64,000 nucleotides of DNA, from the NCBI GenBank assembly GCA_963678705.1, contig OY783216.1:13020001-13084000 (forward strand), read 5' to 3'. This DNA comes from Panorpa germanica (taxonomy: Eukaryota; Arthropoda; Insecta; Mecoptera; Panorpidae). Below the pieces are notes generated by a model, which did not search any database, was not told the DNA's origin, and saw only the letters and a program-made list of their open reading frames with translations. Numbering within the stretch: the stretch's first letter is position 1; each line of letters starts with the position of its first letter. Of this stretch, positions 1-46,911 are shown one piece after another. The translations under genes and the position numbers were made by a program.

Positions 1-609
1 CGAGATTAATGATTTTACAAAAATTTCCACTTATGCTATTTTTCAAAACTCTAACTTTATTTTGCACATATTGAAGTGTATAATTTTGTTTTAAAGTTAC
101 CAGTTTACTACAAAATAGCGGCGACAGAGCCTATCTAGAAAACCATTTTTCATGTAAAGTATAAGACTTCATTTTCTCAAAGGCATAAAAACGTTTGGCG
201 GAAGTTAAGGGTCTGACAATAGGGAATGTCTGTAAATACATTTTTAACCACATATTACACTATTCATTCTTTAAATTTCAACATTGATAAAACGACGTAG
301 GGCTGGAGGAATTTGGATCTTAGAAAAAAAAATTTAAATAATTTTGATTGAAAAAAAAAACACGTTTTGCAAAGTGGGACACTAATATTTACAACTACTT
401 AACAATTTTTTTAAAAACTACTATACAATATTATTTACAAACTCATTTATAATATAAGAGTTTACTCCCTTCAATAATTAAAACAATAAGCGAGTTTATT
501 ATTTTAATTTCAAAATAGAGTTAAATATGAAATGAAATTCAAATTATTATTTAGGATTCAAATCATTTACGCGAAAAAGACGTCGCATTGCGACGGAGAT
601 AAGCTCTAG
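1..609 (+). repeat. Tandem repeat unit A, right-hand end
   Basis: This non-coding stretch is the last 0.6 kb of a long unit that recurs at about 31785-32391, 38690-39544 and (without its terminus) 46660-46880. Shared landmarks in order are a run matching 'gattttacaaaaattt', 'actacaaaatagcggcgac', 'ggtctgacaatag' and the hairpin terminus. No gene is visible. The rest of unit A lies left of the window. The sequence after its end (610-639, 3680-3767) also matches what follows units B and C. Confidence 0.8.
582..609 (+). other. Helitron-type 3' terminus of unit A
   Basis: A short perfect hairpin, GTCGCATTGCGAC (582-594), is followed 11 bases later by CTAG (606-609) and then T. A hairpin about 10-12 bases ahead of a terminal CTRR inserted before T is the known signature of Helitron 3' ends. 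Units B and C have the same hairpin with a decayed tetranucleotide. Confidence 0.6.
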
Positions 610-689
610 TTTTATGATATATTATAAAAAATACATTATTATTAATTGTTTATTGTTCGCCTTTCGGCTTTACAATCTACATTCTTAAT

Positions 690-5478: not shown

Positions 5479-6273
5479 ATGGATTAATTAAACAACTTAT
5501 CAGTAGCAGAATTACGTCAAGAACTTAGCTTCGTTGGATTGAGTCAACGTGGAAATCGTGCTGAATTATTAAAGAGAATGAACCCGTATAATAGCAAAAT
5601 TGGAGAACAGAATAGCAGGTCTGTAAACAATGAAACAGTCAATAAAACTAATTATACGTTTTTAGATTTAGAATTGGCTTTACCTAAATATGATGGACTT
5701 AAAAATGTCAAATTATGGATCAAACAATTTGATGATTTCTGTGACCAGGCGGAAATATATACAAATTACAGATATTTGTATGCCAGGAGATTGTTAACTG
5801 ATACAGCAAAACAATTTGTTAATTTTGAAACCAGGATAATAAACTGGGATACATTTAAATCGTATTTAATCGATAAGTTTGACACGAGTTTAAATAGTGC
5901 ACAGGTTCACAAAATGCTTCAACAAAGGTTTAAGAAACCAGATGAAACTTTTCGTCAATATGTGTATGATATTTTAGACATAGCTCGACAAGCAGATGTC
6001 GAAGAAGCAGCTATTATTAATTATATCATAGCAGGTATTCGTGACAGTACAGCTAATAAAGTGATACTGTATGAAGCTAAGAATATTGCACAACTTAGAC
6101 GTAAGCTTGAACAATATGAAAAAATAAAAATGGATAGTCAGGACTATGATAGAAAATTAAGATCAGGTACCAAAACAAAAACTGAGACAACAGATGAGAA
6201 GATTAAATGTTTTAGTTGTGGTTCGTTATCACACTCATCTAAAGTGTGTCCAAAAAAAAAACAAGGGCTATAA
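5479..6273 (+). pseudogene. gag: Gypsy gag with an N-terminal SAP-like motif
   Basis: Gag forms the particle and packages RNA. The likely start is the ATG at 5479 (preceded by another at 5476), but the third codon is TAA. The frame then stays open to 6273. Right after the stop, residues resembling a SAP helix-turn-helix (SVAELRQEL..VGLSQRGNRAELLKRM) appear; SAP motifs bind DNA. The middle is a typical retrotransposon capsid region (WIKQFDDFCDQ; FRQYVYDILDIARQA). It ends in a CCHC knuckle, CFSCGSLSHSSKVCP (C-X2-C-X4-H-X4-C). The run of nine A near 6251-6260 appears to cause a frameshift before the second knuckle. Confidence 0.85.
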
Positions 6274-26900: not shown

Positions 26901-27420
26901 AATTTGTTTTATTTCAACATTAAATATGTGACTTTTTTATATTTATCACTAAACCAAAACTTTAATGAATATAAATACGAAAATTGTTTTAATCACAGAT
27001 AAACACACAAAACAAGCAACGAGCTGGCAGACACCACAGCCAGACAAAATAGATTTAAATCTTACTTAATACTAATACGAAAATTAAAACAACCACATAA
27101 CAATAAACAAAAAACCATCAACTATCAACAAAAAAAAGTCTACAATCTATTTTTTTAATAAAACAGAAGGGGGTAAAATAATTTGAATATAGCCAATGTT
27201 TACACATGACCGAGTATTTTGTTTGTGAGAACTATTAATTAATGAAAAAAATTCTCTTCAAGAATTTGAAACAATTGTATTATTTAATATATATTTTTTC
27301 TTTATGAAAAAATAATTTCATTAAATTGATTATTTTATATTTTTAGTTTATTTATTTTATTTATAATTTTAATTTAATATATTTTTTTTTTCTTCGGTAT
27401 TTCGAAGTTGATACTTAACA
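20968..27420 (-). repeat. BEL 5' LTR (6453 bp), expanded
   Basis: It matches the 3' LTR end to end but is 2.7 times longer. The unique outer parts (20968-21230 and 27086-27420) align simply with 7497-7760 and 9529-9861. The extra length lies in the tandem array. A few additional ~82-bp short units (21400-21600) are also present only here. Confidence 0.9.
21651..27085. repeat. 178-bp minisatellite array, about 29 units, with higher-order blocks
   Basis: Cores 'cagccaaacacac' fall at 21983, 22161, 22339, 22517, 22695, 22873, 23051 and 23229, exactly 178 bp apart, and continue to about 26996. Each unit is itself two related halves, as 'tacgaaaatt' occurs twice. Diagnostic bases sort units into types: G (gctggtag, agattc), A (gctagtag, ttgattc, ttgttgt), B (as A but ttgtttt, cactaaacc) and C (agattt, aaatatgtaaa). 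From 21983 the order runs G-A-B, G-A-B, G-B, G-B, then C blocks, which is a higher-order pattern. Confidence 0.92.
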
Positions 27421-28153: not shown

Positions 28154-28767
28154 TGTGGGATATAATTTAGGATTAGATATAATTAGTTTGTAAGAAATAA
28201 TAATTATAAAGAACTCTATAAAATAGGTTAGGAACATTGCTAATATTAAGTTATATTTAAATGTTACTAGCTCTGTTTTGAAACGATTTGTGGACCCCGT
28301 TCACTTGACAAGTCTCTTGCTACGACATGCGTAATGCATGGTTAGCGCGAGAGATGGTTAAAATGGCGATAGTAGGAATATACACACTTTGGTATGGCAG
28401 TCATTGGTAAATTCGGGAAATGTTGTATTAACTAGTTGTTAATAACATTAAGAATTAGAATCCGTTTAACAATTTTACTAGTTGTAATAAATGTTGTTTG
28501 ATAATATTGTTGTGAACTATTTTTATATATGTGAGTTATTTTGGTAATATAATTTCTTTGAGAAATAATTTATTAAACTATTACTAAATTCAGTTATGTG
28601 TTAACTTTATTTTTAATAAGCTAAATTGTAAATGGGAGCTCAACTAAGGATTGAAATATCATTAAAACAGCTAAAACCACAGCTGGAATCTAGCTAACAC
28701 CCTCTAAGGTGTAAGGTAGACCCACAATTGAAAACGTCAACCAGAATAGGTTTATTGTCACCCCACA
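28154..28767 (+). repeat. 3' LTR of the Gypsy element
   Basis: This 614-bp LTR begins TGTGGGATATAATTTAGG and ends TCACCCCACA, and lacks the solo LTR found in the left copy. It is followed by (TA)n. The two LTRs differ by scattered substitutions, so the insertion is not recent. Confidence 0.92.
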
Positions 28768-28885
<118 letters not shown>

Positions 28886-29190
28886 GATACAAAGTAGATA
28901 GAAGTTTGATACTTTGCAAAGTATCTAATAACATGGTTACATTTTTTAACACAAAAATGAACACAAAATTGTCGAACAATACTGTCATTGAATATTGATA
29001 TAAGACGAAGCAAATATAAATGGGTCATTTGTTATGTATCTACCAATGTAGATATAGATATGTGGGATATAGTTTCACGTACATGGTGTTACATCTGCTT
29101 GTGTATCTACAACAAAATGCAGCTTTTTTTTGCAATTGCACAGCGTGCGGCGTTGCTGTTTTTTTTTGTATTTTTCTTAGAATATTGATT

Positions 29191-29651
29191 TTAGTTTTCC
29201 TTAGTTCTTAGTAGATCCTTAGTTTTTCTGGCAGTTGATGGCTTGGCTCGTTTGTTGGCAAGTGGTTCTTCGTCTTTGAAATCGTTGCCGAGTGAAAAAA
29301 GGGCGCGTTTCAAAGATCTCTTAGGATTTTTCCAAAGCGTCATTCCTTGCTTTGTGTCGTCTTTAGGTGTAGCATTTGGTACGACTAGTGGAGCTTGTGT
29401 TGCAACAACAATTTTACGTGGTTTGGGAATATAATATTTGATGGCACTTAATAAATTTTTGTTGTTGTTGAATAACTCAAGAATATGAGTTATAAATAAC
29501 TATGGTGGAATAACTTTTAAATAAAGATCTCGACAGTTTTGGGGAAATATATCGTAGACTTGAGGTAGGTTCTTGCATTCTTCCTTGAGTTTCTCTAAGA
29601 AATCGTAATACTCTGCAACTTCTAGAAGCATCTCCATACTGAACATGCCAT
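29191..29651 (-). pseudogene. Unit B, exon 2 of an unrecognised two-exon gene
   Basis: On the minus strand an acceptor-like TTCTTTGTGTTTTAG ends at 29652, followed by 461 nt: two bases completing the split codon from exon 1, then 153 codons ending in TAA at 29193-29191. The product starts GMFSMEMLLEVAEYYDFLEK, later has ILELFNNNKNLLSAIKYYIP and VATQAPLVVPN, and ends basic with a possible nuclear localisation signal (ANKRAKPS). One in-frame TAG at 29502-29500 interrupts it; unit C has GAG there. Codon positions look coding rather than random. No homology recognised; it does not resemble the transposon proteins here. Confidence 0.6.
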
Positions 29652-30629
29652 CTAAAACACAAAGAAAGACCAAAATTAACTTATGCTCTTTAGTTTAGTT
29701 AAAGTAAAATTAAAATTAAAGCAGAACATTATTAGGAAGCCTGAGAAATTATATGAAATTAAATATATAATAATATACAAAAAAAAAAAACTTATGTTTA
29801 AAATAAAATAATATTAATAAATAAAAACTTATATAACACAATAATATAGCACATTAATAGATAAAATAGCTCCCTTTAATATTCTTATAATTTTCAGTAA
29901 TTTTTTTTATTTTGTGCTTTCTGATGTAGAAAAGGTTGACTGCAACTGAGAAAGCATGACATTATATGTGCAAAATTCACATTTGCAACAACAAACAAAA
30001 CATCAAAATATTTTAAGTTCAACAAAATTTTATAAATATTGTAATTGTATAAATTAATAAGAACGCAAGCATAACAAGTAAAAAGTTATTGTCAAGAAGA
30101 CTAATTAAATGTCCTGTATCTCAACTGACATGAAAAATAAGCACGAGGTCAAGTTCGCTCCATAGCTATGCAAAACGACTAGTGTATTCAATGTCAAAGT
30201 CAATGTCAACAACATTTCTAGAAAAATTGATACGTATATATATTTTGTTTTATATATATATTAATGAAATATAATAATAAAATAATATAATATAAAATAA
30301 TATCTTATTTGTAATTGTATGCAGGAATTGTCTTTATCTTTAAACCAAATTCTGTATAACAACACGAAAACAGAAGATGAATGCTACATTTTTATGAAAA
30401 CAAATCGCCTTTATTTTCAAGGAACTGTATAACTAAAATATATTTTAAATGCAGTAAATAAAAATAAAAATAATATGTCAATTGTCAAAAATTTACCTGA
30501 AACGTTTTTTCAACATGAATTATAAATAAGAGAGCTATGTATATAAACCGTAAATATAATATCACAGATTGGACAACGATAATCATCCCTTATATATATA
30601 GTACAGATTAATAAATTAAATCAAGTTAC

Positions 30630-30720
30630 ATTGGATTGGCTTTGCATTGTCAGTCACAGAACTCGTATACGTCATCAAGCCGCCATTTTGTTGTTGAGGG
30701 TTAACTTCTTGCAGATTCTT
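30630..30720 (-). pseudogene. Unit B, exon 1 of the unrecognised gene
   Basis: On the minus strand a leader reading CTCAACAACAAAATGGCGGC precedes ATG at 30675-30673, and 15 codons plus one base (MTYTSSVTDNAKPIQ, T) end at 30630 before GTAACT. Joined to exon 2 (29651) the split codon is TAT, and the frame is kept. The intron is 978 bp. An upstream ATG in 'AAAATGGCGGC' is out of frame or ends at once. In unit D the same exon starts MASTSS. The leader resembles a housekeeping-gene start (YY1/Pho-like AAATGGCGGC) but this is only a motif resemblance. Confidence 0.55.
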
Positions 30721-32363
30721 TATCATGTTGTTTTAAGTTTAAAATGAAATAATTTGTGTTAACAACGTGCTTTAATAATTGAACAAGGTATTACAAAGTT
30801 TAATTTCACTTTATTTAAATCACTAAACACTGAGAAGAATTTTTATTTATTTGTTATTAAAATGTACTCATCGACCTCTGCTGTCTGAAGACAATAGGTA
30901 ACTGCATATGCAAATATATGTCAAGAAATGATTAATATCAAACAACGACATCTAAAGAGTGTGCTTTACAATTCATTTTACTATTAATATTTATTACAAA
31001 CTGACAATATCAAATAACATTTTTATAAAATAATTTGTAAATTTTTATACAAAATTAGTCTTGATATTATTACAAAAAGATTTATAAAGTAAAATTTCAA
31101 AACTAGTGTTTTATTTGTTTATAAATTAGTAAACACTTTATCAAACTAAATTTAAAAATCAACCCTGAAAGCAGGGGTGGTCTAGCTTGTGCTCTTGCTT
31201 CGAGCGGTAAATTAGCTTTTTTTCTTATTCAATAAATTTAAAAATTGGACTAGGTCGAAAAAGTCCAAGACCCGTGACCCTAAATCATTTTTAGAGAATA
31301 ATTCCATAATCAGTAGTTTACAGACAAGTGAAATTGATAATAAAAAAGCGTGCTATAGTCCAAATCACGGTAGTTCGGCGCTGACTTATACTTAAAAGAG
31401 GTTATAAGAGCGGTATAAATCTGTAATACGATAATGAATTTTAGGTCATTCGTTTCTATATACATTAAAGAAAAATAAGTTAGCTGTGCTATTTAGTTAT
31501 ATTGACAGTTTATACCTTACAACTTGTTTTAAGTATGAGACGTCTGCAATCTCTCGTAATTTGAACTACAAGTTTACAATTTGGCACTCTATGCTGCTTT
31601 CACATCTTTTATACGAGTTGTACATATTTTTCTAAAATTTGTTTACAATGTACTAATATTTTAATTAGTGACAAGTGCTCCAGTGTCATTTTATATACAT
31701 GATTATAAATGAATGCCCAGTAACAGACTGAATAAATTTCATTTGTAGTTTTTTATAAATCTATTTTACAATGTAGGAGTTTAACGAGATGAATGATTTT
31801 ACAAAAATTTTACTTATGCTATTCTTTACAACTCTAACTTTATTTAGCAAATATTGAAGTGTATAATTTTGTTTTAGTGTTAATAGTTTACTACAAAATA
31901 GCGGCGACTGAGCTTATCTAGAAAACCATCTTTCATGTAAAGTATAAGACCTAATTTTCTCAAAGGCTTAAAAACGTATAGCGGAAGTTAGGGGTCTGAC
32001 AATAGGGAATGTCTGTAAATACATTCTTAACCACATATTACACTATTCTCTAAATTTCAACTTTGCTAAAACGACGTAGGGCTTGTGGAATTGGGATCTT
32101 GAAAAAATTCTTTTAAATATTTATGATTGAAAAGAAAAACACGTTTTGCAAAGTAGGACACTAATATTTACAACTACTTTTCAATTTTTTTAAAAACTAC
32201 TATACAATATTATTTACAAACTATTTTATAATATAACTAGAGTTTACCCCCTTCAATAATTAAAATAATAAGCGAGTTTATTATTTTGATTTTAAAATAG
32301 AGTTAAATATGAAATAAAATTCAAATTATTTTATTGGATTCTAATTATACACGTGAAAAAGAC

Positions 32364-32391
32364 GTCGCATCGCGACGGGGGTAAGCTATAG
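32364..32391 (+). other. Helitron-like 3' terminus of unit B (decayed)
   Basis: Hairpin GTCGCATCGCGAC (32364-32376), then GGGGGTAAGCT and ATAG (CTAG with one change) before T. It is equivalent to 582-609. Confidence 0.55.
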
Positions 32392-32531
32392 TTTTATAAT
32401 ATATTTTACAAAATACATTATAATATTGTTTAAAAACAATTATAATACTCTTTATTAAAATAAGTATATTAATAAATTTTAAATTTTTGGTAGCTTCTTC
32501 AGATACGTCATTGAATCTTATTAATCATTAG

Positions 32532-32532
<1 letters not shown>

Positions 32533-32618
<86 letters not shown>
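32533..32618. repeat. (TA)n tract between units B and C, left half
   Basis: About 40 TA dinucleotides directly abut the left edge of the second Gypsy element. Confidence 0.93.
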
Positions 32619-33242
32619 TGTGGAAAACGAAAGTACAATCATAATTCTGATGTGGAAAACGAGAGTACAATCCCAATTCTGATGTGGAAAACGAGAATTA
32701 TTCAACTTCTTATGTGGAAAACAATAACCAATCCGCTAATCTGATGTGGAATCAAGGTACTCTTATTGAATTTAGGGCAAATGTCAATTCAATTAATATT
32801 CAACTATGTAATATCTTAATTTATTTGTCAGGATGATAAAGAATTACATAATTTGTTTAATACATTTATTTAATAATATAATAACGATGATAATAATAAT
32901 GATAATAATACAATAACGTTACAATATACACGTTGCTATTTAGTTTACAAATACTACAATGAATGCACAAACCATCCTAAGTTCAAGTTAATATATACTC
33001 CTACAATAGTTTTCAGCTTGACTTAATAGGTTTATTTTTATTACTTCTAAGAATACGTTTAGTTAATTTCATCCCTAACGTATTCAGTCAGTGGTTTAAA
33101 GTTTTCCACATTTTAATTGCTTTAAACTTCACTTGGTTTCCGTTTAAAATATACCCTCATTAATCACATTCTTTATGACTTTCCTAGACCGGGTGTCATA
33201 GTTATGATTTCTTTGTATGCTCGATTTATTTTCACGTTTCCA
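32619..33242 (-). repeat. 3' LTR of the second Gypsy element (624 bp)
   Basis: It matches 35595-36192. The difference in length is mainly one extra copy of a ~30-bp direct repeat beginning 'tgatgtggaaaacgagagta' near its left end. The pol frame runs into this LTR up to about 33144. Confidence 0.88.
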
Positions 33243-33700
33243 TACGGCTTTCCGACCTTTCTTTGGCCTCCAAAGACGAACCGTCACTGCTGTCATCTTT
33301 TTGCTGTCCGGCTCCTGACTCACAACATCTCCAGTTTTAGAATCACTGTCGTCTGAGAACACGCCCCATGACTTCATGTGATCGGCACTTGAGTGTGTAT
33401 TAGAAAAACCTTCCCCTTAACCGATACGTCTTACCCTATAACGTTTATTTGGGTCAACTCGTGTAACCTGATACGGTCCTAAATATTTATTATGTAATTT
33501 CAATCCAGTACCAAACTGAGTTCTTTTTACGGCTACAATGTCTCCGACTTTGTATGTCCTAGCTGGTTTTCTATTTCTATTGAAATTCTTCCGATTCTCT
33601 TTCTGTGTTTTTAATATTTGTTTCTTGGCGTTAACACGTAACTCTTGGAAGTCGTCCTTACGCATTTCTTAATTAACTTCTTCTAACAGCTGAGAGATAT
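33144..33700 (-). pseudogene. pol: Second Gypsy: integrase C-terminal domain and tail
   Basis: On the minus strand, KENRKNFNRNRKPARTYKVG and DIVAVKRTQFGTGLKLHNKY (33640-33500) followed by LGPYQVTRVDPNKRYRVRR are the integrase C-terminal nucleic-acid-binding region, the same type as 27900-28040. A stop at 33417-33419 separates it from an acidic then basic tail (33377-33144) that overlaps the LTR. No catalytic core precedes it. Confidence 0.75.
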
Positions 33701-33705
33701 GCGTC

Positions 33706-34350
33706 TCATCTTCTGTTTTCATTGTCACACCTGATAACAACTTGAAGTATAACTGATAACAACGGTGTAGTATTTATGCTACGCTTATAAGTTTTTATAA
33801 ATGCTTGCTCTTCGACCTTGCCGTCGTTCAACCAGGTTTTTACATGCTTCTCAACTTCTTCTTGTTCGCAGTAAGCCATACGTCGCGAATTTAAAAAAAC
33901 AGGAACCTCATCGGTTATGTATATTTCTGCTGCTTTAGTAACCCTTGTTACTTTTGGTTCATAAGTTTTAAGTAGTTCCTTAACTTTAGGCCTGGCACCT
34001 GGACTAATGTTATTACCCATGACGATTTCGTCGTCGGCTACACATATTATTTTATTCTGCTCACTTTTCTCGTACTTTTTTCCGTCTACACTTATTGTGG
34101 TTTCTACTTGATCTAGCAGAGTTTTACCAATTACAACACTATATCTAGTTGTACTTGATGGAACTATTAAAAAGTTAGTACAGTACTGTTCATTGTCTAC
34201 TTTTACTTGAGCACTAAATTTACCCAAAACTTTGATTTAAAATCCTCCGATTTCAGTCAATACTATATTGTTTTCGCGCACAACCGCATTGTTACTTAAT
34301 TTAATATAATCGTCAGCTCTAATCAAATTCTGATCACTTCCGGTATCAAT
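33706..34350 (-). pseudogene. pol: Second Gypsy: protease and RT start
   Basis: The minus-strand sequence begins near 34350 with FKCLIDTGSDQNLI, an intact D-T-G active site. It continues through TNFLIVPSSTTRYSVVIGKT to the N-terminus of RT (EVPVFLNSRRMAYCEQEEVE ~33900) and stops in 'TTPLLSVIL' where the RT fingers should continue. The remainder of RT, RNase H and most of integrase are missing. A stop at about 34230 splits the protease. Confidence 0.78.
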
Positions 34351-34357
34351 CAGACAT

Positions 34358-35300
34358 TTAAAACTGATACTGTCTATGCTCATGTCTTTTGTCATATGTT
34401 TTATTTGTGTTCACTAACAAAGCATCACTCGTTTTATTCGCGGTACAATTTCTCGAAATATGTCCCTCTTCGTGACATTTGAAACACTTTATTTTACTTT
34501 CACTTTTAATGTTTTTCTCACTTGGTTCGACTCTTTTATTCTCACTGTCTTGGTAGCTTTTTCGGCACACGTTTGCTTTGTGTCCGAGTTCATTACAATT
34601 AAAACATTTTATCGCGTTTGAGTCTTTTGGTCTGTCCTTACGTACACTAAAATTATTCCTTTCTTGCACTTGCAATAGTGTCGAATCATAACGTTTTACT
34701 TTTAACAACAAATCGGGCACTGTTTTAAAGTCGCACATTGATATCACACTTATCATGTCTTTGTTGTTTAGTCCGGCAATTATATTATTATAACGGCTTT
34801 TTCGCTAATATTATTACTTTTACTAGCGATCGCTTTCACCAAATATACATAATCTTCAATTGCTTCGTTTTTTTCTCGTTGTCTCTTCATTAGTTCCATG
34901 TGTACGTCAGATTCATCGTACTTCACTGGGAAATTCCTGATTAACTCGTATTTGAACGTCGTCCAATCCTTAACTACGTTCAAACTAGCATCAAACCTGT
35001 TTTTCGCGGCGCTCTGCAGCTTGTTGACACCTTAATGAAGCTTCACTTTATCACTCCATCAATAAATGTCTGCTACTTCCTCCAATTTTCGCACCCAAGC
35101 TGTAGCCGTCAATACCGTGGTTGCTGGGTTAAACACAGGTATGCATTCCAGGTTCTGTGTCGGCATAAACCCATGGTGATCATTGACTGTTCACTGTTCC
35201 TGATACTTATCTGCAATAGTTCTGTCGTAAGCCTCGTCAGATCTGCTTGCACTCCCAACCAACTATCTTCACTAGATTATGAGTTTCCTTAGCGTCCAGC
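34358..35300 (-). pseudogene. gag: Second Gypsy gag
   Basis: The minus strand shows capsid-like residues WTTFKYELIRNFPVKYDESD (34970-34900) and DYVYLVKAIASK (34855), then two good CCHC knuckles, CFNCNELGHKANVC (~34600) and CFKCHEEGHISRNC (~34480). The N-terminal part (35300-34984) is detectable only across several frames. Frameshifts near 34780 and 34985 and stops upstream disable it. Confidence 0.78.
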
Positions 35301-35594
35301 TAACAAACTATCATCAACAGTAGTATCGTTCATGTTTACGTTATATGCCATTTTCAATTTTCTCCTCGTAAAAGAGTTTACACACTTTTCTGATACAATT
35401 CACTCGCTAGTCCTATTATAAAGTCCGTCTTATATATTCACGACTATTCCGCTAATGAACTATCACTTGAAAGCACTGTTTGTAGAAAACTATCTTGTAT
35501 TATTCTTCTGTGTATTATTCACTTTTGGATAACTCGTAGATATCTAATCCGCACTTAGTTCAATTCGCTATGAGTTACTAATCCGCACTTCTGA
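35301..35594 (-). other. Second Gypsy leader, no gene seen
   Basis: Untranslated region between the 5' LTR and gag. Contains 'atccgcact' at about 35552 and again at 35581, a small local duplication. No primer-binding site was matched. Confidence 0.5.
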
Positions 35595-36189
35595 TGTGGA
35601 AAACGAGAGTACAATCCCACTTCTGATGTGGAAAACGAGAATTATCCAACTTCTTATGTGGAAAACAATAAAAAATCTGCTAATCTGATGTGGAATCAAG
35701 GTACTCTTATTTAATTTTGGGCAAATGTCAATTCAATTAATATTCAACTATGTAATATCTCAGTTTATTTGTCAGGATGATAAAGAATCACATAATTTGT
35801 TTAATACATTTATTTAATAATATAATAACGATGATAATAATAATGATAATAATACAATAAGGTTACATTATACACGTTGGTATTTACTTTACAAATACTG
35901 AACAATGAATGCACAAACCATCTTAAGTTCTAGTTAATATATACTCAGTCCTACATTAGTTTTCAGCTTGACTTAATAGGTTTATTTTTACTACTTCTAA
36001 GAATACGTTTAGTTAATTTCATCCCTTACGTATTCAGTCAGTGGTTTAAAATTTCACACATTTTAATTGCTTTAACCTTCACTTGGTTTCCGTTTAAAAT
36101 ATACCCTCATTAATCACATTCTTTATGACTTTCCTAGACCGGGTATCATAGTTATGATTTCTTTGTATGCTTTATTTATTTTTACGTTT

Positions 36190-36192
<3 letters not shown>
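35595..36192 (-). repeat. 5' LTR of the second Gypsy element (598 bp)
   Basis: Begins TGTGGAAAACGAGAGTAC and ends CGTTTCCA on the plus strand, followed by (TA)n. Aligns with 32619-33242 with scattered substitutions. Confidence 0.9.

Positions 36193-36245
<53 letters not shown>
36193..36245. repeat. (TA)n tract between units B and C, right half
   Basis: About 26 TA dinucleotides follow the right LTR; partner of 32533-32618. Confidence 0.92.
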
Positions 36246-36257
<12 letters not shown>

Positions 36258-36581
36258 TTTTATATATTTTTATATATGTATACAAAGTAGATAGAAGTTT
36301 GATACTTTGCAAATTATCTAAATACATGGTTACATTTTTTAACACAAAATCGTCAAACGATACTGTCATTGAATATTGATATAAGACGAAGCAAATATAA
36401 ATGGGTCATTTGTTCTGTATCTACCAATGTAGATTCATATTGTGTGGGGATATAGTTTCACGTACATGGTGTAACATCTGCTTTTGCATTTACGACCAAA
36501 TGCAGCTTTTCTTCTGCAACTGCACGGCGTGCAGTGTTGCAGTTTTTTTTTGTATTTTTTCTTAGAATATTGATTTTGGTT

Positions 36582-37009
36582 TTAGTTTTTCTGGCAGTTG
36601 ATGGCTTGGCTGTTGCCAAGTGGTTCTTCGTCTTTGAAATCGTTTCCGGATGAATAATGGGATCCTTTTACAGATCTCTTAGGATTTCTCCAAAGTGTCA
36701 TTCCTTGCTTTGTGTCGTCTTTAGGTGTAGCATTTGGTACGACTAGTGGAGCTTGTGTTGCAACAACAATTTTAGGTAGTTTGGGAATATAATATTCGAA
36801 GGCACTAAATAATTTTTTGTTGTTGTTGAATAACTCAAGAATATAAGTTATAAATAACTCTGGTGGAATTACTTTTAAATAAAGATCCCGACAGTATTGG
36901 TGAAATATGTCGTAGACTTAAGATTGGTTCTTGCATTTTTCCTTGAGTTTCTCTAAGAAATCGTAATTCCCTGCAATTTCTAGAAGTATCTCCATACTGG
37001 AAATGCCAT
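36582..37009 (-). pseudogene. Unit C, exon 2 of the unrecognised gene
   Basis: Same acceptor (TTTGTGTTTTAG) ends at 37010 and the same frame opens at 37009. Shared protein blocks with unit B include DFLEKLKEKCKN, RDLYLKVIPPELFITYILEL, and VVATQAPLVVPNATPKDDTK followed by QGMTLW. A TAA interrupts early (in NQS*VYDIF), and a 5-base deletion near 36620 shifts the frame before a stop at 36584-36582. The damage differs from unit B, so each copy decayed separately from an open ancestor. Confidence 0.6.
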
Positions 37010-37641
37010 CTAAAACACAAAGGAAAACTAAAATTAACTTATGCTCTTTAGTGTAGTTAAAGTAAAATTAAAATAAAGCGGAACATTATTAGGAAGCCTG
37101 AGAAATTATAAAAAGTTAAATATATATTTATTAAAATTATATTATTATATATATATATTATATTATATATTAATGATATATAATAATAATATAATATAAT
37201 AAAAAATAATAATTTATTTGTAATTGTAGGCAGGAATTGTCTTTACTTTAAATCATGTTACACGAGGCATACGTTATATTGAATCTTGTTACTACGCAAC
37301 ATGCCGACGCCATTCTTAATCAGAATTCTTTTTTTATTAACAGTAGCCCTTCAAAATACAAATTCTGTATAACAACACGACAGCAGAAAATAAGTGCAAC
37401 ATTTTTATGAAACAAAACGCCTTTATATTCAAGGAACTGTATAACCAAAATATATTTTAAATGCATTAAATAAAAATACAAATATTTTGTCAATTGTTAC
37501 AAATTTGCCTAAAACGTTTTGTCAACATTAATTTTAAATAAGAAAGCTATGAATATAAACCGTAAATATAATATAACAGATTTGTCGACGATAATCATTC
37601 CTTATATATATAGTATAGATTTATAAATTAAATCAACTTAC

Positions 37642-37732
37642 ATTGGATTGGCTTTGCATTGTCAGTCACAGAACTCGTATACGTCATCAAGCCGCCATTT
37701 TGTTGTTGAGGGTTAACTTCTTGCAGATTCTT
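37642..37732 (-). pseudogene. Unit C, exon 1 of the unrecognised gene
   Basis: ATG at 37687-37685, 15 codons plus one base ending at 37642, followed by a consensus donor GTAAGT. Amino acids equal unit B (TSSVTDNAKPIQ). Intron to exon 2 is 632 bp. Leader CTCAACAACAAAATGGCGGC identical to unit B. Confidence 0.55.
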
Positions 37733-39204
37733 TATCATGTTGTTTTAAGTTTAAAATGAAATAATTTGTGTTAACAACGTGCTTTGATATTTGAATAAGG
37801 TATTACAAAGTTCACTTTCACTTTATTAAATCACTAGACACTGAGAAGAATTTTTATTTATTTGTTATTAAAATGTACTCATCGACCTCTGCTGTCTGAA
37901 GACGATAGGTAACTAATTATGCAAATTTATGTCAAGAAATGATTGATATCAAACAACGACATCTATTTCAAAAATTTTTAAAAAAATTTGTAAATTTTTA
38001 TACAAAATTATTCTTGATATTATTACAAAAAGATTTATAAAGTAAAATTTCAAAATAAGTGTTTTATTTGTTTATAAATTAGTAAACACTTTATCAAATT
38101 AAACTTGAAAATCAACCATGAAAGCAGGGGTGGTCTAGCTTGTGCTCTTGCTTCGAGCGGTAAATTAGCTTTTTATTCTCATTTAATAAATTAAAAAATT
38201 GGACGAGGATTAGACAATTTTCAGTTTTTATTCGTATCGAAAAAGTCCAATACCCGTGACCCTAATTCATTTTTAGAGATTAATTCCATAATCAGTAGTT
38301 TACAAACAAGTGAAATTGATAATGAAAAAGCGTGCTATAGTCCAAATCACGGTAGTTCGGCGCCGACTTATACTTAATAGAGGTATAATAGCGTATAAAT
38401 CTGTAATACGATAATGAATTTTAGGTCATTCGTTTCTATATACAATAAGGAAAAATAAGTGAGGCTGTGCTTTTTAGTTATATTTGCAGGTTATACCTCA
38501 CAACTTGTTTTAATTATGAGTAATTTGAAATACAAGTTTACAATTTGGCACTCTATGCTGCTTTCACATCTTTTATACGACTTGTACATATTTTTCTAAA
38601 ATTTTTTTGCAATCTACCAATATTTCAACCAGTGTCCAGTGCTCTACTGTCATTTTATTTACATGATTATATATATTTTTTAGGAGTTTAACGAGAGGAA
38701 TGATTTTACAAAAAATTCCACTTATGCTATTTTTCAAAACTCTAACTTTATTAAGCACATACTAAAGTGTATAATTTTGTTTTAAAGTTTACTACAAAAT
38801 AGCGGTGACAGAGCCCATCTAGAAAACTATCTTTCATGTTAAGTATAAGACTTAAATATCTCAAAGACCTAAAAACCTATGGCGGATGTTAGGGGTCTGA
38901 CAATAGTGAATGTCTATAAATACATTTTTAACCACATATTACACTATTTATTCTCTAAATTTCAACTTTGCTACAACGACGTAGGGCTGGAGGAATTGGG
39001 ATCTTGAAAAAATTCTTTTAAATATTTATGATTGAAAAAAAAAAACGTTTTGCAAAGTAGGACACTAATATTTACAACTACTTTACAATTTTTTTAAAAA
39101 CTACTATACAATATTATTTACAAACTATTTTATAATATAACTAGAGTTTTCCTCCTTCAATTATTAAAATAATAAGCGAGTTTATTATTTTAATATTAAA
39201 ATAG

Positions 39205-39440
39205 ACGACTGCTGTGTCTTCGGGTTTGATCCCCGGACCAGATATATATTTTCTGGGTTTGGTTATTATGAACTTATATTGATTATGGTCATACATAATC
39301 ATACAGGTATTAGGCAGTGGTGTAGCCCACATATATGAGGCCACGACACCATAAATACTGCCAACATTGAAGGAGGTCGTCGGTGATAGGACTCAGCATC
39401 GGTAATAGGCCGACGTTAAATAAAAAAAAAAAAATAAAAA
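39205..39440 (+). mobile_element. tRNA-derived SINE, 5' truncated
   Basis: The insert is flanked by AATATTAAAATAG (39192-39204 and 39441-39453), absent from units A, B and D. Near its start is GGTTTGATCCCCGGACC (39223-39239), a good RNA polymerase III B box of the tRNA type; no A box precedes it. The 3' end is an A-rich tail (39421-39440). Confidence 0.85.
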
Positions 39441-39516
39441 AATATTAAAATAGAGTTAAATATGAAATGAAATTCGAAATATTTTATTGGATTCAAATCA
39501 TACACGCAAAAAAGAC

Positions 39517-39544
39517 GTCGCATTGCGACAGGGGTAAGCTCTTG
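39517..39544 (+). other. Helitron-like 3' terminus of unit C (decayed)
   Basis: Hairpin GTCGCATTGCGAC (39517-39529), then AGGGGTAAGCT and CTTG (CTAG with one change) before T. Confidence 0.55.
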
Positions 39545-39605
39545 TTTTATAATATATTTTACAAAATACATTATAATATTAATTAAAAACAATTAAAATA
39601 CTCTT

Positions 39606-39943
39606 TGGTAAAGCAAAATCCCCCTTTAATGTAATGTATTTTTTGTATTTTTTAGTTTAAAAGATATATTGTATTATTTTGATTATTTGTTTATTTCTTT
39701 TATGCTATTATTATATTTTTTGTTATTTAATGTAATTTCGATTTGCTCCTTTGTTTTCAAATGACTCTATCAACAGCTCTCAAGCCAGCAACAAGGGCAA
39801 ATTGAACTAATTATATTGTATGTATTCAATTGTGCGTGTATTATAAGTGTTAAAAAATAAAACGAAGTACTTTTATTAAATCCAAAACATCCTAGTTCAG
39901 CAAAGGTATTTTTTTTCTCAAATTTAACATCTACAACAAAACA
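39606..39943 (+). repeat. 5' LTR of the BEL-like derivative
   Basis: TG...CA, 338 bp. Start defined by alignment with 43034 and end by the adjoining primer-binding-like block. A possible polyadenylation signal AATAAA lies at about 39856. Confidence 0.75.
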
Positions 39944-40319
39944 TGGTCCTTCGAGCCTCAGATTAATTCAACGTCTTACAAACGGAGAATTTTTACGAAA
40001 GAAAAGAGTTATTCAGAGAGTTATTCGAAAGAAAATTATCTTCAAGAACTTGAAAAGCACCATCCATACAAGCAAGCTACATCGTGGCCTTACATATGTA
40101 TCCAGCGTTCTACTACCAGCACGAGGGAGTCTCATCATGGATTGAGCGTTCAAATTAGTAAGTGACCTGGAATTTTTCTATATATGCTTCCCTTATATTT
40201 ATTCCATATCACTTTATCCTTATAAATTGCACCACTTATTTTGTTTTGGGATTTTCTATTAATTGGTTCTGATGAGTTTTACGTCGTACGTATTCGTTAT
40301 GATGAGTCAACCATTGTGA

Positions 40320-41030
40320 CCAAACCAAATTGATCACACTTATTTTTTCGACAAACGATTTGTCAAGAATTTCCTTGTTGTATAATTTCCGTTGGTTTTG
40401 AACCCCTATCAAACCAATCCCTAAGTATTTATAATTGTGAAAATAGATATAAGGTCGTACCTAGAATCTATGAGCAATTTATAAATAATCAACCCATGTC
40501 GCCAGACCAAATTGGTCACATTATATTTAACTTGACAAACATTTTGTCAAAAATTACCTTTACCGTTGGTTTGAACGCCTATCAAACCAATCCTTAAGTA
40601 TTTATGCTAATGTTAAAATAGATCCAAAGTCATACGTTTAATCTATTATAAATTTTAAAAATAATCAATCCCCATGGCCAGACCAAATTAGTCACATTAT
40701 TTTAACTTATCAAACATTTTGTCAAAAATTACCTTTACCATTGGTTTAAACGCCTATCAAACCAATCCCTTAAGTATTTAAAATTGTGAAAATAGATATA
40801 AGGTCGTCCCTAGAATCTATGAGCAATTTATAATTAATCAATCTTCGCAGCCAGACCAAAGGTCACGTTTATTTTTATATTGGAAAACCGTTGTCAAAAT
40901 TTTCTTATTTAAAATTGCACATGGTTTTGAAACCCTTTTCAAAACCAATCCAAGCAGACATTTATTATTGTGAAATAACAGTTACTTCCTGATCAAAGTT
41001 TGTACCTTAATTTCCTTATTTAAATTTAAA
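40320..41030 (+). repeat. Leader minisatellite, four ~177-bp units
   Basis: The motif 'gaccaaattggtcaca' (variants) recurs at 40323, 40505, 40681 and 40854, each followed by 'catttgtca'-like, 'cctatcaaaccaatcc' and 'aatctatgagcaattta'-like blocks. Spacing 182, 176 and 173 bp. Units are divergent. Located between the LTR and gag. Confidence 0.8.
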
Positions 41031-41422
41031 TTTACGCAAATTGTTATAAATAATTCACAGTCATTTACATATTGCCGAAAATAATATTCATTTTGATAAT
41101 TAGATTTATTGTTGATTATAAAATTACTAGTATCTAATTCAGATTCAACCATCATAGTTTATGTGACCCTTATGCAACGTTTTATTTGGAATTTATATTC
41201 AATCTTTTGTTTTAATAAATGTTTAGAAAACTTTAAATTTCTGTTTGTAAAGAATTGTTGTTTCCTTTATTTAGCGCTATTTTCTTTTATATCTTTTGTA
41301 CAAATTATTATTCGTTTTGAATATTTCTAAAGCCATTGTAGCAAATTATAAAATTCTTTCAAATTTTATTATTATATTTTACAATAGTTTGTTTAAGATA
41401 ATATATGTTCACCCGTTTTACA

Positions 41423-42085
41423 ATGTCACTGGGTAAGAGATTGAAATTTCAAAGCGCATCCTTAATAAAGAAACTAGATATATATATTCAGCAATCTCAG
41501 TCAATTATTTCATATGATCCAACCCCATATAAGTTAAATAAAGTCAAATTCCGACATTCCTTAGTCACTCCGCTTTTAGCTCAATTTAAAGAAATCGCCT
41601 TAGACAGACAATTATTATACAATTCTGAAGACGACCCAGAAATAAGTCAGATAGATGCTGAGGTCAAAGAGTTTATAGTAAAATATATTGAACTTATGGC
41701 GTTAATGAACGAAGCTATTGAGTATTCAGAAGAATCCAATGAAGAAATTAATTTATCAATTTGTGGTGGACAAAATAATTTAGACAATTTATTCCAAACT
41801 AACATTAAAATCTTTAGAGGAGATATTGCCGAATGGTCGCAATTTAAATCTTTGTTTACTAAATTGGTACATTCCAAAGAAAGCTATGACAATGCCATTA
41901 AATTTTCTCACCTGATAAATTTATTAACGGATGATGCCCTAGAAATTATCACGTCTTTAGAAGTAATGCCCGAAAATTATAACACAGCGTGGCTACTTCT
42001 ATTACAAAAATATGATAAGAAGCCTCCAGTCATCTTTATCATTTACAATCCTCATATTTGCAATCCACCCCAGTCACAACCATAG
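41423..42085 (+). CDS. gag: BEL-like gag (DUF1759 type), truncated
   Basis: The frame is open from 41405; the ATG at 41423 (MSLGKRLKFQ) is the likelier start. Residues 130-200 carry the DUF1759-type gag core: KIFRGDIAEWSQFKSLFTKL, FSHLINLLTDDALEI and an LLLQKYD block. It ends by running into unrelated residues at 42045-42085, so it lacks the C-terminal half and zinc fingers of a normal BEL gag. The open frame of over 200 codons suggests either recent origin or selection; I favour recent origin. Confidence 0.7.
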   Translation: MSLGKRLKFQSASLIKKLDIYIQQSQSIISYDPTPYKLNKVKFRHSLVTPLLAQFKEIALDRQLLYNSEDDPEISQIDAEVKEFIVKYIELMALMNEAIEYSEESNEEINLSICGGQNNLDNLFQTNIKIFRGDIAEWSQFKSLFTKLVHSKESYDNAIKFSHLINLLTDDALEIITSLEVMPENYNTAWLLLLQKYDKKPPVIFIIYNPHICNPPQSQP

Positions 42086-42840
42086 AATCAAACAACAACC
42101 TAAAAATCTTTACCATACCATTCAAAGAACCTTCACCAATATTAAACGAATCCCTACTACTTACGAATGATCTTAAAAAACCTATTTTGTCTAAATCAAT
42201 TTTTGTAGATTACAACTTCAATAATATACTCGTATTTATATCTGATAAAGTCAAAATATTTAAGAATCATATCAGCGCCAAAGCTAAATTAAAACTAAAT
42301 ATATTTAATTCCTCGTTTAGCACCCACAATAAAAATATTTCATACTTTATGCGTATTGGTGAAACATTAAAGTATTCACATTTTAATCTTAATGTAAAAC
42401 ACCCTATGGTTTTAGCTTGTGATCATGCGTTAACCAAAATGGTTAAGAGTTCCAAATATAAAAAAATATTTCATACACGCCCTCCAGTGTTATTTCCACT
42501 ATGCGAAAACTTAATACCTTTCCTCCCTACGAGATCACCTAAAACGTTTTTAAGAGTTTCCAATACCCCATACAATGGAGCATGTACTATTTTAGTACAA
42601 ATGAAAATTAATTTACATTCCAAACCTTTTTGTACTATGTCCAAAAGTCTTTACAATTTCCAACCTATATACCCAGGTCACTATTCTATTGAACTTTTGA
42701 TAACCATTGCCCAGGATCTTTATTTAAGTACTAGAGATATGATCCAGCCGCCTCGCCTTAATTATGGTCTACAGAATACATCAGTCAAAAGTCGTCCGCC
42801 CAGAGCTAGACTCAAACGACGTTTAATTGGCAAGGATTGA
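42058..42840 (+). CDS. Open frame of 260 codons, probable altered BEL pol remnant
   Basis: The frame overlaps the gag end by 28 nt and is open for 260 codons. The stretch from HPMVLACDHALTKMVKSS through FLPTRSPKTFLRVSN resembles, at reduced similarity, the zinc-binding part of BEL integrases (H..H, then the 'ARSTIRKVLR' block; compare ~11000-10830). The Cys pair that should follow is absent. The C-terminus is basic (PPRARLKRRLIGKD). It may be a diverged or rearranged pol segment, or a non-autonomous element's own protein. Function not assigned. Confidence 0.5.
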   Translation: MQSTPVTTIESNNNLKIFTIPFKEPSPILNESLLLTNDLKKPILSKSIFVDYNFNNILVFISDKVKIFKNHISAKAKLKLNIFNSSFSTHNKNISYFMRIGETLKYSHFNLNVKHPMVLACDHALTKMVKSSKYKKIFHTRPPVLFPLCENLIPFLPTRSPKTFLRVSNTPYNGACTILVQMKINLHSKPFCTMSKSLYNFQPIYPGHYSIELLITIAQDLYLSTRDMIQPPRLNYGLQNTSVKSRPPRARLKRRLIGKD

Positions 42841-43033
42841 TAAAAGAAGATTCATCACCACTTAATTGCAGCGTATGTTGTACACGGAAATCTTGACTGG
42901 ACCAAATCAACAGCAGAGTGTTACAGCCGTCCAGACTTTCTCATCTCAAATAAAGGGAGCATTTCTTGTAATTCATCTTTGCATGGATATTAGGAAATTC
43001 AGAAATTCCCATTGAATTCCAAACCGGAAGTTA

Positions 43034-43139
43034 TGGTAAAGCAAAATCCCCCTTTAATGTAATGTATTTTTTGTATTTTTTAGTTTAAAAGATATATTGT
43101 ATTATTTTGATTATTTGTTCATTTCTTTTATGCTTTTCA
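43034..43139 (+). repeat. Truncated 3' LTR of the BEL-like derivative
   Basis: First ~105 bp match 39606-39711, then similarity ends near 'ttcttttatgc', just before the mariner-like inverted repeat. Confidence 0.85.
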
Positions 43140-43162
43140 TTTTGTTCATTTCTTTTATTTTT

Positions 43163-45036
43163 GTATCGGCAACCTAAATAGCACTGCTATCCATCACAAC
43201 CATTAAAACTCCTAGAATGCTAGTAGTTTTTACACAAAATTTAATCGAAATTATTTGTTTCATTAAATTTTTAAAGATTTTTATTTTCAGTCAACTTTAA
43301 CTCATCGTGGTGTAAAAAAAAAGTATGAACACTACTATGGCAAGTTTTTTTAAAAATTGGCGCAACTTTTTAGGATTCCAACATACTACAATACTCCAAG
43401 AAAACTAGTATTAAAAAAAAATTATGCATACTATTTCTAAACAAGAACCAAATTTCATAAATTTTTGTTGTTCATAATTTTAAGTTGTTGTTGATATTTA
43501 AATCTTTTACAATACCCAAAATAGATTTCTTATAGTTGAATGAATTAAAACAAATGGTACAAACAATTTTTCTTTCATTTTATAAATTTATTGCATTATT
43601 TACATTACAATAAATGTTCAAATTATTTCCCACCGGTATTAATACAGGCACAACTTCGCCTTAAAAAATATTGTTTTTTTCGGACGTTATTACCATTGGA
43701 TAATATCCAAAACGGGTCGCATTTTGCCGTGTTATGCTGCAAAAGCTCAGGGAAGATCCCCAATTCTTAGGTAAAATTCTATAGTCGGATGAAACAACCT
43801 GCAAGAAAGATGGTTATTTAAATCTTCATAACCTACATAGCTAGCTAACCTTCATAGCTAGAGAAATGAAAATCCGCACCTAATGAGACCAGACAAATCC
43901 CAATATAAATTCAAGATTAACCTATGGACGGGCATATTAAATGGAAAACTGCTTGAGCCCTTTGAAGTACAAGAAAATTAGATGGCAATTGTTATTTGAA
44001 CTTTTTACAAAATGACTTGTCAGAATTATTAGAAGACGTACCCATAAGAGATTTACAAAACATTCGGTTGCAAAATGATGGTTGCCTAGCTCACAATGAT
44101 CGTCCTGTGTGAGAATACTTAAACGAAGAGTATCCAGGGCGTTGGATTGGACGACTTGGTCCTATTTTATGGCCACCCCATTTATCCGATCTAAACCCAC
44201 TGGACTTCTTCTATTGAGGTTGTCTTAAAGAAAGAGCTTATTCAAAACCCGTAGCAACATTGGACGAGCTTCTACAAAAAATTACTCAGGTTGCACATCA
44301 TATGAAAGGTAAACGATATGCTCGACGAATAAAAAGATTTTTTTAAGGCGATGTCGTGCCTGTATTTAAGATAGTAGCAAACATTTTGAACAATTACTAT
44401 AATGTAAATAAACGTTAAAATTAAAAAATAAATGAAAAATTGTTTGTACCATTTGTTTTAATTCATTCAACAATAAAAAACCTCGTTTGGGTATTGTAAA
44501 AGTAATAACTATATCAACAACAACAATTTATGAAATATGGTTCTTGTTTAGAAATTATATGCATAGTTTTTCTTTATTGCTAGTTTTCCTCGAGTATTAT
44601 ACCATTTTGGAATTCTGAAGAGTTGCGCCAATTTTTAAAAAAACTTGCCATAGTAGTGGTTATACTTTTTCTTTACACCACGATGAGTTAAAGTTTACTG
44701 AAAGTAATAATCTTTTAAAATTTTAGGGAAAAAAATAATTTCGATTAAATTTTGTGTAAAAACTACTAGCATTCTGGGAGTTTTAATCGTTGTGATGGAT
44801 AACAGTGCCGATTGCCGTTTAGGTAGCCGATACAAAAAAAAAAATCAGAAATATTTGAAAAATTGTGGTCATGGTAGTTAAAACGTCTTAAGGTGTTTCA
44901 ATTTTTGAAAAAAAAATTTTTTTTTTCTAATTTCTAAACAAAATGAGATAAAAAATTTTTTTCTTTTTTTCTTGTGTAGTCATGAGCAGGACCACCTTCT
45001 GGTGCCGGCTTATCGTTGAATTTTAGGACACCCTGT
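43163..45036 (+). mobile_element. Mariner-like DNA transposon with ~440-bp inverted repeats, left end missing
   Basis: 43163-43610 and 44400-44836 are inverted copies: 'atcggcaacctaaatagcac' at left answers 'gtttaggtagccgatac' at right, and 'tttaactcatcgtggtgtaa' answers 'ttacaccacgatgagttaaa'. A transposase remnant lies between. On the right the element continues 200 bp further to AGGACACCCTGTA, the typical outer end of mariner-group ITRs, at the junction with unit D. The matching outer 200 bp on the left is gone. Confidence 0.8.
43776..44345 (+). pseudogene. Mariner-like transposase fragment
   Basis: Across shifted frames: ILWSDE (first catalytic Asp), FKINLWTGILNGKLLEPF (~43911), LQNDGCLAH (second Asp, ~44070), then EYPGRWIGRLGPILWPPHLS followed by DLNPLDFF (third acidic residue, ~44130-44210). 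The DDE/D core order is that of the Tc1/mariner superfamily. Stops at about 44111 and 44217 and several frame changes; the N-terminal DNA-binding part is not seen. Confidence 0.8.
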
Positions 45037-46911
45037 ATGTATATTAATGAAATATAATAATAATATAATATAATAAAGAATAATAATTTATTTGTAATTG
45101 TAGGCGAGAATTGTCTTTACTTTTAAATCATGTTACATGAGGCATACGTTATGTTGAATCTTGTTACCACGCAACATGCCGAAACAGAAGATGAATGCTA
45201 CATTTTTATGAAAACAAATCGCCTTTATATTCAAGGAACTGTATAACTAAAATATATTTTAAATGCAGTAAATTAAAATAAAAATATTATGTCAATTGTC
45301 AAAAATTTGCCTGAGACGTTTTTTCAACATGAATTATAAAGAAGAGAGCTATAAATATAAACCGTAAATATAATATAACAGATTTGACGACGATAATCAT
45401 CCCTTCATATATATCATCCCATCATATATATAGTACAGATTAATAAATTAATTCAAGTTACATTGGATTGGCTTTGCATTGTCAGTCACAGAACTCGTAG
45501 ACGCCATCGGGCCGCCATTTTGTTGTTGAGGGTTAACTTCTTGCAGATTATTCATCTTGTTGTTTTAAGTTTAGAATGAAATAATTTGTGTTAACAACGT
45601 GCTTTAATAATTGAACAAGGTATTACAAAGTTCAATTTCACTTTATTTAAATCATTAGACACTGAGAAGAATTTTTTTTTATTTGTTATTAAAATGCACT
45701 CATCGACCTCTGCAGTCTGAAGACAATAGGTAACTGCATATGCAAATATATGTCAAGAAATGATTGATATCAAACAACGACTTCTATCTCAAAAATTTGG
45801 TTAAAGGGTGTGCTTTATAATTTTTATTACTATTAACATTTATTACAAACTGACAATAGCAAATAACATTTTTATAAAATAATTTGTACATTTTTATACA
45901 AAATTATTCTTGATATTATTACAAAAAGATTTATAAAGTAAAATTTCAAAATAAGTGTTATATTTGTTTATAAATTAGTAAATACTTTATCAAACTAAAT
46001 TTGAAAATCAACCTTAAAAGCAGGTGCGGTCTTTTGGGCTCTTGCTTCGAGCGGTAAATTAGCTTTTTATTCTTATTCATTAAATTAAAAAGTTGGACGA
46101 GGATTGGACAGTTTTAAGTTTTTATTCCGTATCGAAAAAGTCCCTAATGTGACCCTTATTTATTTTTAGAGATTAATTCCATAATCAGTAGTTTACAGAC
46201 AAGTGAAATTGATAATGAAAAAGCGTGCTATAGTCAAAATCACGGTAGTTCGGTTCTGACTTATACTTAAAAGAGGTTATAAGAGCAGTATAAATCTGTA
46301 ATACATTAATGAATTTCAGGTCATTCGTTTCGTTATACATTATAGAAAAATAAGTAAGCCTGTGCTTTTTAGCTATATAGGCAGTTTATACCTTACAACT
46401 TGTTTTAAGTATGAGACGCCTGCAAACTCTCGTAATTTGAACTACAAGTTCACAATTTGGCCCTCTATGCTGCTTTCACATCTTTTATACGAGTTGTACA
46501 TATTTTTTTAAAATTTATTTGCAATCTACCAATTTTTTAACCAGTGCATAGTGCTCCACTGTCATTTTATATATATGATTATAAATGAATGCCTAGTATC
46601 GGACTAAATAAATTTCTTTTGTTGTTTCTTATAAATCTGTTTCACAATGTAGAAGTTTAACGAGATGAATGATTTTACAAAAATTTCCAGCTATGCTATT
46701 TTTCAAAACTCTAACTTTATTTAGCACATATTAAAGTGTATAATTTTGTTTTAAAGTTACCAGTTCACTACAAAATAGCAGCGACAGAGCCTATCTAGAA
46801 AACCATCTTTATCCATCTTATGTGAAATATGAAATGAAATTTAAATTATATTATTGGATTTAAATCATACACGCGAAAAAGACTTTTTTTATAATATAGT
46901 TTTATAATATA
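45037..46911 (+). repeat. Tandem repeat unit D, partial
   Basis: Aligns with unit B from about 30250 to 32360. Its left half, including exon 2 of the enclosed gene, is missing next to the mariner-like element. A ~370-bp stretch corresponding to unit B 31950-32320 is deleted near 46815. It ends 'cgcgaaaaagac' without the hairpin, so the terminus is lost. Apart from exon 1 no gene is visible. Confidence 0.85.
45462..45552 (-). pseudogene. Unit D, exon 1 of the unrecognised gene
   Basis: ATG at 45507-45505 gives MASTSSVTDNAKPIQ plus one base, ending at 45462 before GTAACT. Here the CpGs that appear as TG/CA changes in B and C are kept, so this may be the least decayed exon 1. No exon 2 follows because unit D is truncated. 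Confidence 0.55.

What the first reader, a model, noticed from the sequence alone, without database searches (positions are those of the whole stretch)
29191..45552. Unrecognised two-exon gene repeated inside a Helitron-like tandem array
Units B and C carry on the minus strand an exon 1 (15 codons plus one base, then GT) and an exon 2 (after TTTTAG) whose split codon joins in phase in both; unit D has exon 1 only. The inferred protein is about 170 residues, starts M(A/T)(S/Y)TSSVTDNAKPIQ, and ends with a basic segment. B and C carry different inactivating changes (TAG at 29502-29500; early TAA plus 5-base deletion in C), which implies an open common ancestor. The leader AACAAAATGGCGGC looks like the start of a cellular gene. 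Helitrons are known to capture and amplify host gene pieces with introns; the 3' terminus found in the units fits that. I cannot name the protein.
Basis: partly seen in the sequence, partly recalled or inferred. Interest (0 to 1): 0.8.

Follow-up and report, generated by a model that had tools for sequence, protein, structure and literature searches.

The report
Decayed array of PAH-domain genes
The window holds broken copies of a small two-exon gene whose protein is one SIN3-type PAH domain with a basic tail; the gene has spread to about thirty places in this genome by duplication of the locus, some copies still look intact, and its function is untested.

Summary
Units B and C carry the two exons with the split codon, stops and 5-base deletion described; D has exon 1 only. 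Corrections: the frame starts 16-17 codons further upstream, and the 'ATGGCGGC' leader is out of frame. The protein can be named: exon 2 encodes a stand-alone PAH (paired amphipathic helix) domain of SIN3 type. Ranks 1-17 of 23 PDB profile hits are SIN3/Pst chains (best E 6e-9); the genome's own SIN3 matches at 32%. By single-sequence Pfam scans the match is only borderline. The genome holds at least 29 exon-2 copies on 11 contigs. Of 16 two-exon copies checked, 7 are uninterrupted, none among the 5 from the C13 array. The PAH core was under strong purifying selection between lineages (omega 0.14-0.18); the tail looks neutral, and no constraint is detectable within the C13 array or the amplified family. 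The gene is not inside a Helitron: the '3-prime terminus' belongs to a ~155-base insertion in the intergenic flank that is missing at the C18 locus. Expression and function are untested.

The parts
30630..30726 (-). Unit B exon 1: in-frame ATG at 30726-30724, donor GTAACT
29191..29651 (-). Unit B exon 2: PAH domain, then basic tail; TAG inside at 29502-29500
   Evidence: PAH
37642..37738 (-). Unit C exon 1: in-frame ATG at 37738-37736, donor GTAAGT
36582..37009 (-). Unit C exon 2 (to the first stop after the last open stretch as it stands): PAH domain with early TAA (36920-36918) and a 5-base deletion near 36603-36610
45462..45555 (-). Unit D exon 1 only; no exon 2 found beside it
28767..32619 (-). 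Array unit B, bounded by (AT)n tracts; its right part (about 31817-32548) is homologous to the 3' flank of the gene at other loci
36192..39612 (-). Array unit C
45036..46810 (-). Array unit D, truncated
1..652 (-). Array unit A, fragment: the segment homologous to the gene's 3' flank
39141..39544 (.). Same insertion in unit C (here ending CTCTTG), interrupted by a SINE-like insertion (about 39206-39440)

Best explanation
The units are decayed tandem copies of a two-exon gene for a small protein made of a short Q/N-rich N terminus, one PAH domain (SIN3 type) and a basic tail. Shown: the gene exists once on C18 (496 aa, with 32-35-aa repeats in the tail) and as further copies on ten other contigs; the duplicated piece is the locus with upstream and downstream flanks and intron; the PAH core was under strong purifying selection between the lineages; all five C13 two-exon copies checked, B and C included, are broken, while six amplified copies and the C18 copy are uninterrupted with usable splice sites. 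Inferred: the protein goes to the nucleus by its basic tail, folds as a four-helix PAH bundle and binds the amphipathic helix (SID) of transcription repressors. As no HDAC-binding part was found in it, it would compete with SIN3 for those repressors, or act as a small adaptor. The spread was by segmental and tandem duplication with later transposon insertions, not by a Helitron.
Confidence: 0.72

Rival explanations
1. A Helitron captured the gene with its intron and amplified it in tandem.
For: A palindrome followed by CTAG lies in some C13 units (unit A and L013 end CTCTAG; B ends CTATAG, C CTCTTG), like the canonical Helitron 3' end (5' TC, 3' CTRR, palindrome about 11 bases away; passage of PMC4067079).
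Against: That end belongs to a ~155-base insertion with inverted ends. The C18 locus lacks it but keeps the gene and sequence on both sides. In the 10 kb fetched around the C24 copy and the first C4 copy the segment lies only on the 3' side of the gene. Duplicated stretches differ in length between loci.
Confidence: 0.05
2. Only the C18 gene works; all amplified copies are dead or dying passengers of segmental duplication, and the array means nothing functionally.
For: 0 of 5 C13 two-exon copies are intact and 4 of 10 in the other amplified loci are broken (L025 and L019 cut in the tail, L022b stop and lost donor, L028 lost donor). Omega within the C13 array and within the amplified family is not below 1.
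Against: Six amplified copies remain uninterrupted with ATG, GT and AG, though two of them are near-identical neighbours on C117. Core constraint between the amplified family and the C3 type (summed ratio 0.12) argues for past function outside the C18 lineage.
Confidence: 0.4
3. A non-coding repeat with a fortuitous frame.
For: AT-rich, repeat-rich window; window copies broken; B and C have no Pfam hit.
Against: Shared start, donor, acceptor and frame over several lineages, omega 0.14-0.18 in the core, significant SIN3 PAH profile match.
Confidence: 0.02

Closest known systems
SIN3 / Sin3A corepressor, PAH1 domain (Pfam PF02671)
   Same: PAH core in register with PAH1 (and PAH2) of SIN3; four predicted helices; best solved-structure hits are SIN3
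   Different: One PAH only, no Sin3_corepress match in exon 2 of the C18 copy at E up to 1; 196-496 residues; two exons; multi-copy; basic tail, with repeats in the C18 copy
Other proteins with PAH domains (GON4L: two PAH domains and a SANT domain; abstract of PMC13212936 seen in the listing)
   Same: PAH domain outside SIN3
   Different: Multidomain protein; here a single PAH is the only recognised domain
Canonical Helitron
   Same: A palindrome and CTAG-like end near the gene
   Different: Gene lies outside the insertion; inverted ends; C18 locus without it
Amplified chromatin-protein competitors such as Slx/Sly of mice (title and abstract of PMC7743899 in the listing)
   Same: Multi-copy genes thought to compete for chromatin partners
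   Different: Not a PAH protein as far as the abstract shows; no evidence here of sex linkage, testis expression or drive

Membership tests
PAH domain family (PF02671) | Profile score at or above the curated cut-off | tested here: inconclusive
   C18 copy: 21.3 against 21.3 for a 101-residue piece, 22.2 in the six-frame genome scan, but 18.0 for the whole exon 2; 1 of 7 members hits at all; window copies B and C: no hit
PAH domain family (PF02671) | Homology of the family profile to solved PAH domains | tested here: met
   ranks 1-17 of 23 PDB sequences are SIN3/Pst, best E 6.4e-9
PAH domain family (PF02671) | Four-helix bundle with hydrophobic cleft | tested here: inconclusive
PAH domain family (PF02671) | Binds an amphipathic SID helix | not testable with these tools
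   needs a binding assay
SIN3 corepressor | Several PAH domains followed by the HDAC-interaction region (Sin3_corepress) | tested here: not met
   one PAH stretch and no Sin3_corepress in exon 2 of the C18 copy at E up to 1, whereas the C4 SIN3 ORF has both; proteins of 196 or 496 residues
Helitron | Gene inside an element that ends in CTRR with a palindrome | tested here: not met
   terminus lies in a ~155-base insertion outside the gene; C18 locus without it
Helitron | No target-site duplication, insertion between A and T | tested here: inconclusive
   TTTTATAATATA on both sides of the small insertion in units B and C, but the flanks are AT-rich and the exact empty site at C18 is unclear
Helitron | 5' TC end and Rep/helicase partner | not tested
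   not searched

The most novel reading that the evidence does not exclude
A selfish or conflict-driven family: stand-alone PAH proteins amplified as decoys that take repressors away from SIN3 (for example in the germ line), with the dead C13 array as relic or as source of silencing RNA. The exon-2 'divergence island' (17-18% against 8-10% in the rest of the unit, with silent change per site far above replacement change in the PAH core) would then reflect selection on the copies.
Probability: 0.1. Interest if true: 0.8.

Novelty: new variant of a known kind. Interest (0 to 1): 0.45.

Why it matters
PAH domains are best known as parts of large corepressors. A gene that consists almost only of one PAH domain, was kept by selection and then amplified to at least 29 exon-2 copies would be a natural competitor of SIN3, and a case in which an amplified gene can be tied to a defined chromatin pathway. 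It also shows that a Helitron-like end beside a repeated gene does not make the gene a Helitron passenger.

Tried and rejected
Pfam on B and C alone: no family up to E 10. NCBIfam on two copies: none up to E 1. Viral contigs: 531 pattern matches, none a relative by tblastn. The C10 locus with exon-1 similarity (L036) showed a decayed exon 1 and no exon 2 in the 6 kb fetched. One search fitted the free codon models but its omega = 1 fits failed; two searches looked for the omega output; one search reports both models (omega = 1 fitted on the free tree with the best of 7 kappa values). Sequences left out: the codon sets use 7 or 8 of 28 aligned copies for the between-lineage core and 7 for the tail; stop and gap codons were masked; the first 15 exon-2 codons of the C3-type copies and L027b were masked because other DNA replaces them; codons after 146 of the C3-type copies and L029 were masked as well. 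Pairwise tail values against the C18 copy were 1.3-3.2, but the alignment there is doubtful and they were not used. tabulates only the 16 copies with both exons in one fetched stretch, out of at least 29. In one search only 40 of 2862 first-look candidates were scored, so counts are lower bounds; a further tail piece on C61 (112252-112757) seen there is not in the 29. One search counted only alignment columns with local identity of 0.5 or more; one search's counts were recomputed from its rounded fractions, and its three pairs share L027. The output was cut. How common the ~155-base insertion is in the genome stayed unanswered. Confidence was lowered from 0.75 to 0.72 when the whole exon 2 of C18 scored below the Pfam cut-off.

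Literature: searches. Searches found no paper; one, on plant WRKY factors; 86 and 87 list 12 of 7,757 and 10 of 6,186, and none listed is about an amplified PAH-only gene family; 71 lists 12 of 22, 76 lists 8 of 11. Novelty is claimed only against these. Read: passages of PMC4067079 and PMC6168491; other papers only as listing titles and abstracts. The labels gypsy-like, SINE-like and hAT-like, and the first recognition of the PAH pattern, are recalled; PAH was then tested. That the organism is an insect was not tested.

Full report
Observation. The window lies on contig C13 (13020001-13084000) of a 464-Mb assembly in 249 contigs. Units B (28767-32619), C (36192-39612), D (45036-46810) and a fragment A (1-652) are homologous.

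The gene family. A search with exon-2 DNA found 28 places. A search with the C18 peptide gave 32 rows; one is the SIN3 ORF on C4 and two pairs are pieces of one copy, which leaves 29 copies on 11 contigs: 8 on C13, 4 on C3, 3 each on C61 and C117, 2 each on C4, C5, C124 and C222, 1 each on C18, C21 and C24; these are lower bounds. Of the 16 copies with both exons in one fetched stretch, 7 have ATG, GT, AG and no stop in the first 196 codons: six amplified copies (C61 two, C117 two, C4, C124) and the C18 copy (496 aa). L028 (C24) is open but its donor is lost, L025 (C222) and L019 (C61) are cut in the tail, L022b (C117) has lost its donor and has an early stop, and all five C13 copies are broken. 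The second C4 copy has a SINE-like insertion in exon 2. The C3-type copies (four on C3, one on C5) keep exon 2 only from about codon 15 on, joined to other sequence.

What the protein is. Single copies from the window match no Pfam family, but 7 of the 10 PDB hits of B were SIN3/Pst chains, the best at E 0.22. A profile of seven translations matched SIN3/Pst chains in ranks 1-17 of 23, best E 6.4e-9, eight at E 1e-4 or better; the other six hits are dUTPases and one other protein at E 0.6 or worse. Pfam is borderline: the C18 piece of 101 residues hits PF02671 at 21.3 bits, exactly the gathering score, the six-frame scan gives 22.2, but the whole exon 2 gives 18.0. The same scan shows split-exon PAH matches on C21 and an intronless ORF on C4 with three PAH stretches, which is a SIN3 by Sin3_corepress (99.2 bits). 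BLASTP of the C18 peptide to it: 32% identity, 63% positives over 62 residues. The fold of B and C alone is weak (pLDDT 55.8) but has four helices at the expected places; 3 of 5 Foldseek hits (E 1.3 to 9.2) and 5 of 6 VIA rows are PAH structures.

Selection. In the PAH core (exon-2 codons 16-77) omega is 0.14 for seven sequences of three lineages and 0.18 for eight sequences of five, and omega = 1 is rejected (2dlnL 37.3 and 47.7). The tail gives 0.94. Within the C13 array the core gives 1.26 and the tail 0.71, within the amplified family the core 1.9 and the tail 0.87, and the C3 type 0.45; none of these differs from 1 at the 5% level (pairwise counts). So the gene was kept for its protein over the long branches; no constraint is seen among the C13 copies since they multiplied, and constraint on today's amplified copies is not shown.

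Divergence island. Between amplified copy L027 and three C13 copies (B, C, L017b), exon-2 codons 16-146 differ by 17-18% but the rest of the unit by 8-10% (Fisher p 8e-7 to 4e-5; the pairs share L027); within C13 (B against L017b) there is no such island (9.1 against 8.3%, p 0.62). Gene conversion of the flanks, replacement of the PAH module by an older paralogue (the C3 type begins at about the same codon) or selection on the copies could do this; it is not settled.

How it spread. The C18 locus is collinear with the amplified units: exon-1 region, exon 2 and three blocks of 3' flank. In the 10 kb around the C24 copy and the first C4 copy the 3'-flank segment lies only downstream of the gene; in the C13 and C117 arrays it is followed by the next unit. 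The homologous stretches differ in length between loci. The 'Helitron' end lies in a ~155-base insertion (window 32237-32391) with inverted CTAGAG... ends and TTTTATAATATA on both sides. C18 lacks a stretch of about 200-250 bases that holds it; the exact empty site is unclear, because the two flanking matches overlap by some 50 bases in C18. Pieces like it occur elsewhere (C18 intron, C5 locus). Segmental and tandem duplication of the locus explains this better than Helitron capture.

Mechanism. Shown: PAH homology, gene structure, history of constraint. From the literature: PAH domains are four-helix bundles whose cleft takes one amphipathic helix, and isolated PAH1 is folded and binds a SID peptide (passages of PMC6168491). 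Inferred: the protein binds repressor SIDs without bringing HDAC and so competes with SIN3, or serves as an adaptor. Not tested: expression, binding, localisation.

Verdict. The window itself is a graveyard; the interest lies in the amplified PAH-only family.

Noticed in passing
L035 (C4:24425500-24428900): Intronless SIN3 ORF (1079 aa open frame) with three PAH stretches and Sin3_corepress, beside split-exon PAH matches on C21:3.206-3.210 Mb; perhaps a retrogene.
   Followed up: partly
L037 (C4:23858900-23859400): Another short ORF (147 residues seen) with a single PAH match over the Pfam cut-off (23.8 bits) and a glycine/proline-rich tail: a second PAH-only candidate gene.
   Followed up: partly
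L034 5281-6295: C18 copy carries an in-frame minisatellite (main period 105 bases, 6.9 copies, 94% matches at 5532-6250) giving 32-35-aa repeats in the tail.
   Followed up: partly
window 32645-36190: LTR-retroelement-like insertion between units B and C; terminal repeats 94.6% identical.
   Followed up: no
window 21886-27085 and 8308-9528: Minisatellite arrays of ~178-180-base period (29.1 and 6.8 copies).
   Followed up: no
window 39206-39440; L027 8400-8690: A similar SINE-like insertion with short flanking duplications, in the unit C flank and inside exon 2 of the second C4 copy.
   Followed up: partly
L030 6330-8016: Frames that look like a hAT-type transposase beside the C3-type copies (label recalled).
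   Followed up: no
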